DNA of 64,000 bases from an uncultured Treponema sp. (GTDB taxonomy: Bacteria; Spirochaetota; Spirochaetia; Treponematales; Treponemataceae). Shown here in pieces: positions 48,378-60,880 of this stretch. Below the pieces are notes generated by a model. That model was not told the origin of the DNA and ran no database searches. It worked only from the letters and a program-made list of their open reading frames with translations. How positions within the stretch are numbered: position 1 is the stretch's first letter; the number at the start of each line of letters is the position of its first letter. The translations under genes were made by a program, and so were the position numbers. The DNA is taken from assembly GCA_946411505.1 (NCBI GenBank), contig CAMKEG010000002.1, positions 348,852 to 412,851 on the forward strand, read 5' to 3'.

Positions 48378-49074
48378 AGTGCAAAAACTGTCAGTCAGCT
48401 ACGGCGCGATAAACGCCTTGCGCGAAATCAGCTTTAACGTTGAGCGGGGCGAAATAATTTCTTTGATTGGCTCTAACGGCGCCGGAAAGACGACGACGCT
48501 TCACGCCGTGTCGAACATCATCAAAAAGCGTGGTGGCAAGATTGAGTTTGAGGGCGAGGACATCACAAATTTGGCGCCTGACCAAATAGTCCGCCGCCGC
48601 TTGATTCAAGTGCCGGAAGGAAGGCGCATTTTCTTGAACCTTAGCGTCCGCGACAACTTGGAAATGGGCGCCTTTACGAGAGGCGACAAGGCCGGAATCA
48701 AGGCCGACATGGAAAAGGTCTTTGAATTGTTCCCCCGCCTTAAAGAGCGAATCACGCAGATTAGCGGAACCTTGAGCGGCGGCGAGCTTCAAATGCTTGC
48801 GATGGGCCGCGGCTTGATGGCCCAGCCCAAATTGCTTTTGCTTGACGAGCCCAGCATGGGCTTGGCTCCGATTTTGGTCGACGAGATTTTTGAGATTATC
48901 CAAAAAATCAACAAGGCCGGAACGACGATTTTGCTGGTTGAGCAAAACGCCTTTAAGGCGCTTTCCATCAGCAACCGCGCCTACGTTTTGGAAACAGGCT
49001 CAATCACCAAGGACGGCGACGCCAAGGAATTGGCCAAGGATCCGGCGGTCAAGGAAGCCTATCTGGGCGGTTAA
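48370..49074 (+). CDS. livF: Branched-chain amino acid ABC transporter ATP-binding protein
   Basis: GSNGAGKTT; LSGGELQMLAMGRGLM; LLLDEPSMGLAP. Confidence 0.95.
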   Translation: MLKVQKLSVSYGAINALREISFNVERGEIISLIGSNGAGKTTTLHAVSNIIKKRGGKIEFEGEDITNLAPDQIVRRRLIQVPEGRRIFLNLSVRDNLEMGAFTRGDKAGIKADMEKVFELFPRLKERITQISGTLSGGELQMLAMGRGLMAQPKLLLLDEPSMGLAPILVDEIFEIIQKINKAGTTILLVEQNAFKALSISNRAYVLETGSITKDGDAKELAKDPAVKEAYLGG

Positions 49075-49205
49075 GCGGCGAAAATAAACGGACGCAAGAC
49101 CAAGAACGAATTTCGCCGCATGAGTCGCAACGCTGCGCTTGCGGCTTGGTTGTTAAAATTTGCGCAAACGCAAAAGTCGTGGTATAATTTTAGCGGAGGT
49201 TTTGA
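49075..49205 (+). repeat. Intergenic GCGGCG..CGCCGC element, diverged copy upstream of the CBS gene
   Basis: GCGGCGAAA...TTTCGCCGC starting immediately after the livF stop; then ATGAGTCGCAAC as in copies at 56.2/59.9 kb. Confidence 0.5.
49160..49188 (+). promoter_or_regulatory. Putative promoter of the CBS-domain gene
   Basis: TTGCGC - 17 nt - TATAAT. Confidence 0.5.
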
Positions 49206-56183: not shown

Positions 56184-56290
56184 TCCTCCAAATAAAATAC
56201 CGCTGTCCACGCGAGCTTGGTTGCGAGCGCGGATGTTGCGGCTTATGCGGCGTCGTCCGCTTTTTTGCTTGCAAACGCGCGCGTCGCCGC
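56184..56290 (-). repeat. Intergenic two-hairpin element (copy C), upstream of lgt
   Basis: Minus strand: GCGGCG...CGCCGCATAAGCCGCAACATCCGCG...CGTGGACAGCGGTATTTTATTTGGAGGAG. Confidence 0.75.
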
Positions 56291-57438
56291 TAAACTTTAT
56301 ATCCTTGCTGGGCCGCTTTGACCAGCTTTGATTTTAGCAACGTGTTTTCCTTGCGGACTTGCGTAAGCTCGTAGGAAAGAGTTTTGATTGTCTCGACCAG
56401 CTCGCCTTCGGTAAGGGCGCCGCTTCCGAGCAAGTCGCGAAGGCCCGCCATCTTGGCCTCGTAGTCTTCCTCCGCCTCTTCGGTGGCCACGTCAAACGAA
56501 TTGTTGACGTTGTCGGCCGGCGGCTCAAACTCGGCGCCAAAGGCCAAGGTTTCGCTTGAAAGAATTTTTTCGGCGATGCGATAGATGGCCTGCGACAAAA
56601 TGTTTTGCGGCTTGTAAATTATGATTGGAAGCCGCGAGGCAAGCGCCTTGTCTTCAAGCGAGTCGCGGTAAAGGACTCCCAAGTGCTCAAGGTCGATTCC
56701 TAAGTATTCCTTGCACGAGCGGCGGATGCGCAGCGCCTTGTCCGCGTCCTTGGGGTCGTCAATCATGTTCATCACAAGGCGCGGGCGGAAAATTTTAAGG
56801 TTCCGCATGACCGCTTCGGAATTCTTTGGGTCGACTTTCACGAGTTCCTGCATCATTTGCGGAATGTATAATTTTTGCATCGCGCTTGAGCTTTTCTTTA
56901 GTTCGCGGAACCACTTGGCCGCTTCGCTCGACGTTTTAAAAGTTGAGTTCATCAAGCGGAACACAGCGTTCTTTAAGAACAAGTAGGCGTTGAGCGTGGC
57001 CGTGACCGCCGGAGCGGAAACGACGATTCCCTGCGGAGAGAGCAGGAACAAGTCCAAAATTATTTGGTGGGTTCCCGCTCCCAAGTCTATGATTAAATAA
57101 TCGCAGTCGATGTTCTTGAAATTTTTTATTATCTTGGAACGTTGCGGGGCCTTGAGCGCGGTGAGGCCCGGAATCTCCGAGTCGCCCGCGATAAAGCTTA
57201 GGTTTTCGTATTCGGTGGGCTGAATGATGTCGGCGAAGTTTCCGTTTCCCAAAAGCCAAGTGCCCAAGCCGTGTTTTGGCGAAGGCTGGCCCAATACAAG
57301 GTGAAGGTTCGACGCGCCCAAGTCAAGGTCGGCCAGCACTACGCGCTTTCCGGCTTGTCCAAGGGCGATGGCCAAGTTTGCGGACAAAAGGCTTTTTCCA
57401 ACGCCGCCCTTTCCGCTGGCAACAGGAATGATTTGCAT
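56290..57438 (-). CDS. MinD/FlhG-like P-loop ATPase with C-terminal acidic/coiled-coil tail
   Basis: PVASGKGGVGKSLLSANLAIALG deviant Walker A; VLADLDLGASNLHLVLG. Confidence 0.88.
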   Translation of the reverse strand: MQIIPVASGKGGVGKSLLSANLAIALGQAGKRVVLADLDLGASNLHLVLGQPSPKHGLGTWLLGNGNFADIIQPTEYENLSFIAGDSEIPGLTALKAPQRSKIIKNFKNIDCDYLIIDLGAGTHQIILDLFLLSPQGIVVSAPAVTATLNAYLFLKNAVFRLMNSTFKTSSEAAKWFRELKKSSSAMQKLYIPQMMQELVKVDPKNSEAVMRNLKIFRPRLVMNMIDDPKDADKALRIRRSCKEYLGIDLEHLGVLYRDSLEDKALASRLPIIIYKPQNILSQAIYRIAEKILSSETLAFGAEFEPPADNVNNSFDVATEEAEEDYEAKMAGLRDLLGSGALTEGELVETIKTLSYELTQVRKENTLLKSKLVKAAQQGYKV

Positions 57439-57569: not shown

Positions 57570-59075
57570 ATGAATTTGCATTCGTCTAAGTTGAGAATTT
57601 TCCGCGCGGCGGCTTTCGCGCTGTGCTTTTTTGTTTCGGGCTTTTTTGTTTCAAAATGTTTTGCGGAGAGCGGACAAAAGAATTCCGCCGCCGATTCCAG
57701 CGAATACATTCGGACAATAGCGCAAATCTTCTATACATTGCAAAGCCGTTTTGTGGAAGAGGTTGACCCGGAAGTTTTGTACAAGGGCGCGCTTGACGGA
57801 ATGATGAAATCCCTCAACGACCCTTACACCGTCTACCTTGACTCAAAGGACATGCGAAGCCTCAACGACACGACCGAGGGCGCCTTTTACGGCGTGGGCC
57901 TTTCGATTTCAAAGAGGAACGAATCCAGCGCCGACAACCCGGCTTACGTAGACGTCATTTCTCCGATAGAAGGAACGCCCGGCTACAAGGCGGGAATCCA
58001 GGCCGGCGACAAATTGATAGAAATCAACGGCGAGCCTACGCCCGAAATGTCCATGGAAACCGTCCTTTCAAAATTGCGCGGACCAAAAGGCGAGGGCGTA
58101 GAAGTCACGGTTTTGCGCGGAAAGAGCGTCACATTTAAAAGAACTTTGATTCGCGACTTGATAGAGGTTCCGACAGTTGAGTTTGGAACGCTTCAAGGCA
58201 AAAAAAATCTTTACGGCTACATGAAGCTAATTCAATTCACCCCGGACACGGTTCCGCGCGTCCATGAAGCGATTGATTCATTTAAAGAAAAAAAATGCTC
58301 AGGGCTAATCATAGACTTGCGAAACAATCCGGGCGGACTTTTGGACAGCGCCGCCAAAATCGGAGACTTCTTCATTGACGAAGGCCCGATTGTAAGCACA
58401 AAAAGCCGCTTGGCTTACGAGTCGCGCTCAATCAACGCCAGCGCCGACAACACGATTGTAAAAGATTTGCCGATTGTCGTTTTGATAAACAAGGGCTCCG
58501 CCTCCGCGTCGGAAATTTTGAGCGGCGCGCTTAAAGACAACCACTTGGCCTATTTGGTCGGCGAGCGCACTTACGGCAAGGGCAGCGTTCAGCAAGTCAT
58601 GACGCTTAAGCATGACGACGGAATCAAGGTGACGATGGCGCGCTACTACACGCCCAGCGACACCAACATCGACAAAATCGGAATTCCGCCGGACAAGGAA
58701 ATTACCCTCAGCCCTGAATACACGGAAGAGCAGACAAAGGCCTTCTTAAAGCTTTCCGAAGACGAGACGATTAGAAAATATGTCGAAGGCCATCCTGACA
58801 TGACGGAAGCCGACATTGCCGAGTACGCGAAAGTTTTGCAAAAGGACTATGACTTGGATTTGCGCCTGCTTCGCCGCTTGGTTAGAATTGAGGTTGGCCG
58901 CACAAAAGACCCTCGCCTTTACGACTTGGATTTTGACGTCCAGCTTGTCGAAGCGATGAACGTTCTTGACCAAGGAAATTTCAAGGACTTGGTGAAGGGC
59001 ACAAAAACTTTGAAAGAGTTGCAGGAAGAGGCCGAAGCCAAGGCCGAACAAGGCGATTCTGAAGCCAAGAAATAA
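57570..59075 (+). CDS. ctpA: Carboxyl-terminal processing protease (S41, PDZ)
   Basis: Signal peptide; PDZ GYKAGIQAGDKLIEINGEP; INKGSASASEILSGAL Ser/Lys catalytic region. Confidence 0.93.
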   Translation: MNLHSSKLRIFRAAAFALCFFVSGFFVSKCFAESGQKNSAADSSEYIRTIAQIFYTLQSRFVEEVDPEVLYKGALDGMMKSLNDPYTVYLDSKDMRSLNDTTEGAFYGVGLSISKRNESSADNPAYVDVISPIEGTPGYKAGIQAGDKLIEINGEPTPEMSMETVLSKLRGPKGEGVEVTVLRGKSVTFKRTLIRDLIEVPTVEFGTLQGKKNLYGYMKLIQFTPDTVPRVHEAIDSFKEKKCSGLIIDLRNNPGGLLDSAAKIGDFFIDEGPIVSTKSRLAYESRSINASADNTIVKDLPIVVLINKGSASASEILSGALKDNHLAYLVGERTYGKGSVQQVMTLKHDDGIKVTMARYYTPSDTNIDKIGIPPDKEITLSPEYTEEQTKAFLKLSEDETIRKYVEGHPDMTEADIAEYAKVLQKDYDLDLRLLRRLVRIEVGRTKDPRLYDLDFDVQLVEAMNVLDQGNFKDLVKGTKTLKELQEEAEAKAEQGDSEAKK

Positions 59076-59914
59076 TGAGACAATTTGTTTCCGCCGTCGC
59101 GCCAAATTCAAAAGGCCTCTTGGAAATCACGGGGAAGGATTTTCATTACCTTAGAAAAGTTTTGCGCTTGTCGCCCGGAGACATGATTAGCCTTTCGCTT
59201 CCCGGCGGCGTTTTGCAGGACGCCACCATTTGCAAGATTGACGACGGCGCAAAAAAAATTGAGCTGCAAATTTGCGATTCGCAAGGCCTAAACCGCGACG
59301 GACAAGATTGCCCGCAAGGCCAGGAAGCCGCCGCGCGGACCCGGCTTGTTCTTTTGCAGTTCATTCCAAAGCCGCAAAAGATGGAGTTGATTGTCCGCCA
59401 GGCTGTCGAATGCGGCGTGGCCGCGATTGTTCCCGTAATCGGAGAATACACGCAAGCAGGTTTTGACAAAGCCTTGCAAAAGCCCGGCCGTTTTGAAAAA
59501 ATAATTCGCGAGGCGCGCCAGCAAAGCGGCTCGCAAGTTGAGACGCAAGTTTTTCCGCCTTGCAAGTTGCCGGCCGCGCTTGGCTTGATTGACAAAAATG
59601 AGCCGGCCGCCTTGAGGCTTTTTTTGTATGAAAGAACGGAAGGAACGCTTCCGCTTTCCGCCGCGCTTTTTGGACAAGAACAAGACTGCTCTAAAGCCCA
59701 GGAAGCCGCCGCCGCAAGTTTTGGCCTTGCAAAAAGCCGCGCTCCAAAATCTTGCGTTTACGCTGTTGGCTGCGAAGGCGGAATAAGTCCCGCCGAATGC
59801 GAGCTTCTTTTGTCGCGCGGCTTTAAGGCCGCGCACTTTAACACGAATATATTGCGCTGCGAGACCGCGTCGCTTTACGCGGCGGCGGCAATCCAAAGCG
59901 CTTTGGACAACTAG
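59075..59914 (+). CDS. rsmE: 16S rRNA (uracil1498-N3)-methyltransferase
   Basis: FHYLRKVLRLSPGDMISL; KPQKMELIVRQAVECGVAAIVPV; VGCEGGISPAECELLLSRGF..NILRCETASLYA. Confidence 0.92.
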   Translation: MRQFVSAVAPNSKGLLEITGKDFHYLRKVLRLSPGDMISLSLPGGVLQDATICKIDDGAKKIELQICDSQGLNRDGQDCPQGQEAAARTRLVLLQFIPKPQKMELIVRQAVECGVAAIVPVIGEYTQAGFDKALQKPGRFEKIIREARQQSGSQVETQVFPPCKLPAALGLIDKNEPAALRLFLYERTEGTLPLSAALFGQEQDCSKAQEAAAASFGLAKSRAPKSCVYAVGCEGGISPAECELLLSRGFKAAHFNTNILRCETASLYAAAAIQSALDN

Positions 59915-59918
59915 GGTA

Positions 59919-60131
59919 GGAGGACTAGCGGCGATAAAATCGGAGGCACGCCAAAGATTGAACGACGCCGCATGAGCGACAACATCCGCGCTCGCGACCA
60001 AACTCGCGCGGACAGTCGTATTATATGGAGGACTAGCGGCGATAAAATCGGAGGCAATCCAAAGATTGAAAGACGCCGCATAAACGGCAACAAACGCGCG
60101 CGCGAGGCTTGCGCGTTCAGCCGTAATATAT
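59919..60131 (+). repeat. Tandem two-hairpin element (copies A and B, 108 and 105 bp) upstream of the WecG-like gene
   Basis: GGAGGACTAGCGGCGATAAAATCGGAGGCA..CCAAAGATTGAA.GACGCCGCAT repeated; GGAGGACT occurs at 59919, 60027 and 60132. Confidence 0.9.
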
Positions 60132-60142
60132 GGAGGACTAAA

Positions 60143-60880
60143 ATGGCTATCGAAAGAATTGACATAGCGGGAGTTGGCGTCGACATTTGCCGGCCTGAAA
60201 ACCTTGAGAGCGAAATTTTGGAATTGCTAGCGAAGCCCGGCACAAAACAAATTGTGTTCCTTTCCATTTGGGGGCTCTTGAAGGCTCGCGGAAAAAACAC
60301 TTTCGCCGAATGCGTAAAAAACGCCGACCTTGTCCTTCCGATTTCAAAAAGCATTTTAAAGGCCGCGGCCTTCTTGAAGCGCGAAGTTCCTAACCGCTAC
60401 AATCCGTTCAACGGCCTTATAGACATTCTTTCGATTTTGGATTCCCATTACAGAAGCTTTTACATTTTAGGCGGAAAGAAAAAGTCTCTCCAAAAGTCCG
60501 TCGGCAACGTTATGAAGACTTTTCCAAATTTGCGAATCGTCGGCCGTTATGTCGGCTACTATCCCAAAACTCAAGAGGACGACATAATTCAAGCGATATA
60601 CAAAGCCTCGCCGTCTTTGGTGTTGCTCAGCGAAGGAATCAAGGAAAAAGACTGCTGGCCTTACAACCGCCGAAACCGCTTTTCCTCAAGCGTTTTCATT
60701 TATTACCGAGACGCAATCGGAATTTTCAGCGACCAAGTTCATCGTGTCAGCGAAGCCACCTTCAACGCCGGGCGTGAAATTTGGAGCGAAATTTTACGAA
60801 ATCCGATAAAAATTTTCTTGCTTTTTCCGTATTTATACTTTAAAATATTACTTGTCTGGTACAGAATTTTTAAAAAGTAA
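60143..60880 (+). CDS. WecG/TagA/CpsF-like protein (possibly catalytically degenerate)
   Basis: Family-like pattern ...YRSFYILGGKKKSLQKSVGNVMKTFPNLRIVGRYVGYYP; start 60143 follows GGAGG SD. Confidence 0.75.
   Translation: MAIERIDIAGVGVDICRPENLESEILELLAKPGTKQIVFLSIWGLLKARGKNTFAECVKNADLVLPISKSILKAAAFLKREVPNRYNPFNGLIDILSILDSHYRSFYILGGKKKSLQKSVGNVMKTFPNLRIVGRYVGYYPKTQEDDIIQAIYKASPSLVLLSEGIKEKDCWPYNRRNRFSSSVFIYYRDAIGIFSDQVHRVSEATFNAGREIWSEILRNPIKIFLLFPYLYFKILLVWYRIFKK

What the first reader, a model, noticed from the sequence alone, without database searches (positions are those of the whole stretch)
59919..60142. Covarying two-hairpin element immediately upstream of a Shine-Dalgarno, tandemly duplicated before the WecG-like gene
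Copies A and B (108 and 105 bp) each contain hairpin 1 GCGGCG..CGCCGC (A 59928-59971, B 60036-60079) and a nested hairpin 2 (A 59977-60018, B 60085-60123). Hairpin 2 has an outer 4-bp stem, an invariant internal loop AACA/CA and an inner stem. A third copy lies on the minus strand before lgt (C, 56200-56241). Outer stems are CGAC/GTCG (A), CGGC/GCCG (B) and CCGC/GCGG (C). Inner stems are TCCGCG/CGCGGA (A), AACGCGC/GCGCGTT (B) and TCCGCG/CGTGGA (C). Several differences are compensatory (A-T to G-C, G-C to C-G), which suggests selection on RNA or cruciform structure. Each ends about 8-10 nt before GGAGG. It could be a translational control element, a ligand-binding leader or a structured mobile repeat.
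Basis: seen in the sequence. Interest (0 to 1): 0.75.

Follow-up and report, generated by a model that had tools for sequence, protein, structure and literature searches.

The report
Mobile two-hairpin repeat between operon genes
A roughly 100-letter repeat that folds into two hairpins has spread to dozens of places in the genomes of rumen Treponema bacteria, always reading in the same direction as its neighbour genes and often inserted between a gene's ribosome-binding site and its start codon in a way that leaves a ribosome-binding site in place.

Summary
The host genome holds 54 full copies plus weaker or composite ones. Seven other Treponema assemblies, mostly from the rumen, carry 10-60 matches each; the other same-genus genomes scanned have none, bar one borderline hit. 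Over 152 copies, 17 base pairs stay paired in all but 5 of 2,584 cells; one pair is G-C in 76 copies, C-G in 75, never broken. It is not a riboswitch leader: it precedes unrelated genes and is mobile. At the wecG site one relative is empty (TAGGAGGACTAAAAATG), one has a single copy, and this genome has two, each bounded by GGAGGACTA. It lies in sense with both neighbours in 100 cases, antisense to both in none. A Shine-Dalgarno on its left sits 2 nt plus TA before the element; one on its right lies 4-5 nt after it, with the start codon usually 14-19 nt after. The closest known kind is the mycobacterial MIRU. Not identified: the mobilising enzyme, and whether selection or template switching maintains the stems.

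The parts
59919..59927 (+). Left Shine-Dalgarno core GGAGGACTA, the host's original ribosome-binding site for wecG
   Evidence: Sequence; the empty orthologous site in G063 reads TAGGGTA-GGAGGACTA-AAAATGGC
59926..60021 (+). Copy A of the element (begins at the TA of the core)
   Evidence: R1 match, 97.1 bits
59928..59971 (+). Hairpin 1 of copy A, GCGGCG..CGCCGC
59977..60018 (+). Hairpin 2 of copy A, outer stem CGAC/GTCG, internal loop AACA/CA, inner stem TCCGCGC/GCGCGGA
60027..60035 (+). Second GGAGGACTA core, between A and B
   Evidence: period 108 nt from the left core
60034..60126 (+). Copy B of the element, with different hairpin 2 stems (CGGC/GCCG, AACGCGC/GCGCGTT)
   Evidence: R1 match, 87.9 bits
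60132..60140 (+). Third GGAGGACTA core, the working Shine-Dalgarno of wecG (ATG at 60143)
60143..60880 (+). Downstream gene, WecG/TagA/CpsF glycosyltransferase
   Evidence: Pfam PF03808, 2.4e-28
59075..59914 (+). Upstream gene, RNA methyltransferase (RsmE-like)
   Evidence: Pfam PF04452, 2.7e-35
56197..56292 (-). Copy C of the element, before lgt; its first TAG is the stop codon of the upstream ParA-like gene
   Evidence: R1 match, 94.6 bits; stop at element position 1-3
56185..56189 (-). Shine-Dalgarno GGAGG of lgt, just after copy C
49073..49176 (+). Divergent fourth copy: hairpin 1 kept, second half replaced by GTCGCAACGCTGCGCTTGCGG
   Evidence: R1 match, 38.7 bits, E 5.8e-9

Best explanation
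The element is a small non-autonomous mobile repeat of rumen Treponema, adapted to life between genes of an operon. In about a third of the sites with a downstream gene it has inserted into the spacer between a Shine-Dalgarno and its start codon, at GGAGG-N2-TA. The result is SD - element - SD - start codon, so the gene keeps a ribosome-binding site at the usual distance. At other sites it lies at the 3' end of the upstream gene, whose reading frame is often closed by the element's own first three letters, TAG. Because it is tolerated in one orientation only, all surviving copies read with the genes. The two hairpins are kept intact in each copy. Shown here: copy number, mobility, sense orientation, register to the Shine-Dalgarno, structure maintenance. 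Inferred: that it is mainly selfish or neutral, that insertion is nearly silent for translation, and that the hairpins are what an unidentified enzyme recognises.
For: Copies: 54 full ones in the host, 10-60 matches in each of six other Treponema/Spirochaetaceae assemblies, 43 in G035; of the other same-genus genomes scanned all but one had none, and that one had a single borderline match (E 0.009). Mobility: at the wecG site G063 is empty with the bare TAGGAGGACTA-AAAATG, G065 has one copy, G000 has two, G035 has one with a nested insert; more G035 sites lacking the element; 105 distinct sites among 152 copies, 74 of them in one genome only, though sampling of six genomes was partial. Orientation: 100 copies in sense with both neighbours, 0 antisense to both; in G000 alone 34 to 0. 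Register: exact GGAGG on the left at -7 or -6 in 17 copies and almost nowhere else; on the right at +4 or +5 in 46; start codons mostly 14-19 nt after the element. Stop codons: 38 of 130 upstream genes end exactly on the element's TAG, 28 more end inside it. Structure: 5 broken of 2,584 cells over 17 pairs; at orthologous sites 25 two-sided changes, 0 one-sided, 3 broken; stem divergence 3.6% against 10.0% unpaired.
Against: No mobilising enzyme was found: RAYT/IS200-type transposase (PF01797) is absent from all eight carriers, reverse transcriptase is present only in G000, and IS630-type DDE_3 has only two matches, both below its cut-off. There is no consistent target-site duplication outside the Shine-Dalgarno class. 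Copies without a downstream gene lack a Shine-Dalgarno at the right end (5 of 34, as background), so the Shine-Dalgarno is not a fixed part of the element. Some element-free sites in G035 are deletion remnants, so absence is not always ancestral. Most genomes are metagenome assemblies.
Confidence: 0.83

Rival explanations
1. A host-beneficial intercistronic RNA module. The hairpin that follows the stop codon directly insulates the two reading frames, as described for ribosome termination structures, or protects the mRNA from decay, and is kept by selection at each site.
For: Hairpin 1 begins right at the TAG that ends 38 of 130 upstream genes; stems evolve about three times more slowly than loops at orthologous sites; a termination-structure role is described for bacteria in PMC7518266.
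Against: Sister species lack the element before the same genes, including essential ones; no shared function of the genes; patchy presence.
Confidence: 0.3
2. The covariation does not reflect selection. It comes from template switching in replication, which copies one hairpin arm onto the other, or from gene conversion between copies, which moves whole hairpins.
For: G-U pairs are almost absent (5 of 2,736 cells), and several neighbouring pairs change together at one site (CGC to TTT with full compensation), as expected of template switching (PMC8794818). At the C2:244344 site hairpin 1 is identical in two genomes while hairpin 2 is replaced.
Against: Neither process alone explains why unpaired loop motifs such as AACA/CA and GCAAGCC are also conserved, or why neighbouring stem pairs differ so much in variability.
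Confidence: 0.35
3. A cis-regulatory leader: a ligand- or protein-binding RNA that controls the downstream genes as a regulon.
For: Fixed distance to the start codon, strong structure, sense orientation.
Against: Unrelated downstream genes, copies after which no sense gene follows (34 of 152), rapid gain and loss of sites, Shine-Dalgarno left accessible, no Rfam match.
Confidence: 0.05
4. A conventional MITE or REP element mobilised by a known insertion-sequence family.
For: TA at the left border in most copies and often at the right.
Against: No terminal inverted repeats in the sequence; no PF01797 in any carrier, no DDE_3 above cut-off. Other transposase families were not searched.
Confidence: 0.15

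Closest known systems
MIRU, mycobacterial interspersed repetitive units (Supply et al. 1997, as described in PMC12548453)
   Same: Short, apparently mobile, dispersed intergenic repeat that inserts at gene starts in a way that spares expression of the gene. Same orientation as operon genes and tandem arrays in MIRU are from my own knowledge.
   Different: MIRU carries a small ORF coupled to the gene at -4 nt. This element has no conserved ORF, starts with a stop codon, sits between two Shine-Dalgarno sequences, and has two covarying hairpins.
ERIC, RUP, BOX and Correia elements
   Same: About 100-bp intergenic repeats with RNA secondary structure, confined to a few related species, in tens to over 100 copies (PMC2229807, PMC3049150).
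   Different: Several of these have terminal inverted repeats and a candidate helper insertion sequence. Pneumococcal repeats are enriched between convergent genes; this one is mostly inside co-directional operons in one orientation.
REP/BIME elements with RAYT transposases
   Same: Hairpin-forming extragenic repeats in many copies.
   Different: Longer, no GTAG or CGTC tag, no RAYT in any carrier genome.
Ribosome termination structure (PMC7518266)
   Same: A stable hairpin immediately after a stop codon in an operon.
   Different: That is a functional class without common sequence; this is one mobile sequence family.

Membership tests
MIRU | Short intergenic repeat in operons, same direction as neighbours | tested here: met
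   ~97 nt; 100 sense copies to 0 antisense
MIRU | Internal ORF coupled at -4 nt to the downstream gene | tested here: not met
   Start codons lie mostly 14-19 nt after the element end; no conserved start codon in the alignment
REP/RAYT | RAYT tyrosine transposase in the genome | tested here: not met
   PF01797 absent from all eight carriers
RUP-like MITE of IS630 | Terminal inverted repeats and an IS630-type transposase | tested here: not met
   Consensus ends TAGCGGC and GCSGTA are not inverted repeats; DDE_3 only below cut-off, in two of eight carriers
RUP-like MITE of IS630 | TA target site | tested here: inconclusive
   TA at the left border in most copies; TA duplication plausible at some sites, not consistent
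Riboswitch or ligand-binding leader | Upstream of functionally related genes and conserved at orthologous genes | tested here: not met
   Unrelated genes, absent at orthologous sites
Any Rfam family | Match at or above the gathering score | tested here: not met
Ribosome termination structure | Stable hairpin directly after a stop codon | tested here: met
   38 of 130 upstream ORFs end on the element's TAG; mean fold energy -37.3 against -22.3 kcal/mol shuffled
Ribosome termination structure | Controls re-initiation | not testable with these tools
   Needs reporter assays
Integron attC site | RYYYAAC ... GTTRRRY boxes at cassette ends | tested here: not met
   No conserved GTTRRRY in the 48-copy consensus; copies are dispersed, not in a cassette array. 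Integron integrase not searched.

The most novel reading that the evidence does not exclude
A mobile element whose integration core is the ribosome-binding site itself. A hairpin-bearing intermediate (circular DNA, single-stranded DNA or RNA) joins at GGAGG-N2-TA, so that every such insertion duplicates the Shine-Dalgarno and is translationally silent. It would be driven by an enzyme that recognises the two hairpins and is not of the RAYT, IS630 or reverse-transcriptase families.
Probability: 0.3. Interest if true: 0.8.

Novelty: new variant of a known kind. Interest (0 to 1): 0.62.

Why it matters
It shows how a selfish repeat can invade the tight spaces of bacterial operons, even ahead of essential genes such as fusA, ligA and cmk: by reading only with the genes, ending the upstream frame with its own stop codon and leaving a Shine-Dalgarno on the far side. 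It also provides a natural data set of over a hundred paralogous hairpins with near-perfect pairing and almost no G-U pairs. That makes the open question of whether stem compensation comes from selection or from template switching directly testable. Finally, its mobilising enzyme is unidentified.

Tried and rejected
1) I first took the 3' Shine-Dalgarno as a fixed part of the element (a portable ribosome-binding site). Copies without a downstream gene have it no more often than background (5 of 34), so I dropped that as a general claim. 2) RAYT/REP: no PF01797 in carriers. 3) Retro-mobilisation: a reverse transcriptase is in G000 only. 4) IS630 MITE: only two sub-threshold DDE_3 matches. 5) A clean general target-site duplication: seen around the Shine-Dalgarno, not elsewhere. 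6) Shine-Dalgarno sequestration: not predicted. 7) An ORF-length method of calling gene direction gave false antisense calls; replaced by codon-usage scoring. 8) A first scan by regular expression missed most copies; replaced by model coordinates. 9) The relatives search suggested only one other strong carrier; a pattern scan of named genomes showed more.

Full report
What was claimed.

What is there. All three are real. A covariance model places A at 59926-60021, B at 60034-60126 and C at 56292-56197 on the minus strand. A and B repeat with a 108-nt period that includes the sequence GGAGGACTA, which occurs three times: before A, between A and B, and after B. C has hairpin 1 as well as hairpin 2. 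A fourth, divergent copy lies at 49073-49176. There is no Rfam match.

Copy number and spread. A core pattern gives 51 places in the host genome with up to 3 mismatches, and none for the reversed control. The model finds 54 full copies and 39 weaker, truncated or composite ones, 93 in all. Among the other same-genus genomes scanned, one (G035) has 43 matches, one has a single borderline match (E 0.009), and the rest have none; none of 24 same-order genomes has any (that scan used stricter filters). A pattern scan of named species genomes hit Treponema and Spirochaetaceae assemblies, several of them labelled as rumen or reticulum; six of these genomes hold 10, 13, 19, 34, 54 and 60 matches. One of the named records, RUG13809, has a contig of the same length as G035's contig 52, so G035 is probably that assembly.

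Structure. Hairpin 1 is a 5-bp stem round a loop of roughly 36 nt with a conserved GCAAGCC-AAAA motif. Hairpin 2 has a 4-bp outer stem, the asymmetric internal loop AACA/CA, and an inner stem. On 48 copies, 98.6% of cells are paired and 9 of 18 pairs change on both sides; 0 of 500 shuffles reach this, and slid partners do not. On 73 copies from six other genomes the result repeats (this alignment was fitted to the model). Over all 152 copies, leaving out the marginal innermost pair, 5 of 2,584 cells are broken. One pair is G-C in 76 copies, C-G in 75 and A-T in one. G-U pairs number 5 of 2,736 over all 18 pairs. Between orthologous copies, stems changed 25 times on both sides (cells, not independent events), never on one side with the pair kept, and 3 times broken. 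Unpaired positions differ at 10.0%, stem positions at 3.6%. Part of the constancy of the 5' arm comes from the search pattern; the 3' arm was not selected.

Mobility. Flanks of G000 and G035 copies are about 90% identical, yet only 11 of 53 G000 copies lie at a site that also holds a copy in G035 (G035 is fragmented). G035 often lacks the element where G000 has it; several other sites are deletion remnants. The clearest case is the window's own site: G063 reads ...ACAACTAGGGTA-GGAGGACTA-AAAATGGCT, with no element. G065 has one copy between two GGAGGACTA. G000 has two copies between three. G035 has one copy with a nested ~57-nt insert. G064 has a truncated B-like piece followed by an A-like copy with the insert. 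At the lgt site, G065, G035 and G060 have no element and the genes overlap at ATGA; G063 and G064 carry what look like remnants. Among 152 copies there are 105 distinct sites, 74 seen in one genome only (six genomes were sampled only in part).

Orientation and register. Gene direction was called by codon usage. Both neighbours are in sense in 100 copies and antisense in none; in G000 alone 34 to 0. Copies at shared sites are not independent, but the G000 count is. Of 130 upstream genes in sense, 38 end on the element's own TAG and 28 more within the element. Where a downstream gene follows in sense, a Shine-Dalgarno-like motif lies just after the element in 80% (controls 7-12%) and just before it in 36% (controls 5-12%). 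Exact GGAGG on the left lies at -7 or -6 in 17 copies and almost nowhere else in 40 nt; on the right at +4 or +5 in 46 copies. Start codons fall mostly 14-19 nt after the element. Where no sense gene follows, the Shine-Dalgarno rate is background (5 of 34), so the motif is not a fixed part of the element. This leaves two readings of the doubled core: a target-site duplication of about 9-11 nt, or integration at a shared core.

What it is not. The downstream genes include glgA, fliW, thyX, mtnN, ligA, trpA, cmk, panC and fusA, besides lgt and wecG, so this is no regulon. The Shine-Dalgarno is predicted to be more accessible with the element than with a shuffled one (0.60 against 0.45). RAYT, reverse transcriptase and IS630-type enzymes do not co-occur with the element; the assemblies are incomplete, so absence is not proof.

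Comparison with the known. The nearest description is of the mycobacterial MIRU, which inserts at start codons with little effect on the gene (PMC12548453). The way of life is similar, but the MIRU's defining coupled ORF is absent here. ERIC, RUP and BOX are similar in size and copy number (PMC2229807, PMC3049150); the pneumococcal ones favour convergent gene pairs, unlike this one. I found no paper that describes this family; the library holds open-access papers only.

Open points. Whether the stems are held by selection or by template switching and gene conversion is undecided. The scarcity of G-U pairs and the changes of several neighbouring pairs at once fit template switching (PMC8794818). 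The conserved loops and the very uneven variability of neighbouring pairs speak for an added constraint.

Noticed in passing
L096, L098, L102, L103, L142, L143, L331 (nested); L015:1636, L048:173, L136, L159 (outside): A second dispersed hairpin repeat of about 57-70 nt (ACGG..CCGTTTTGC..TTATTTACTTGC-stem-GGGCAAT) is inserted inside copies of the element, at GCAT/AAGC, CATT/CGCGC or in the hairpin 2 loop, and also occurs alone. At the wecG copy G065 lacks it and G035 and G064 have it.
   Followed up: partly
window 49073-49176; L097, L101: A sub-family keeps hairpin 1 but has another second half (GTCGCAACGCTGCGCTTGCGG); in L097 it is in tandem with a ~77-nt period.
   Followed up: no
L164 (G000:C3:218459 region): Where G035 has the element, G000 has an ATTCATAATTATGAAT tandem repeat in the same intergenic gap.
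   Followed up: no
L318 (G000:C1:456625-457173): A lone reverse transcriptase gene (PF00078) in the host genome, absent from the seven other carriers; its type was not determined.
   Followed up: no
L008, L014, L271, L310, L311: Tandem arrays of two or more copies with 108-114 nt period at several sites, differing in copy number between genomes.
   Followed up: partly
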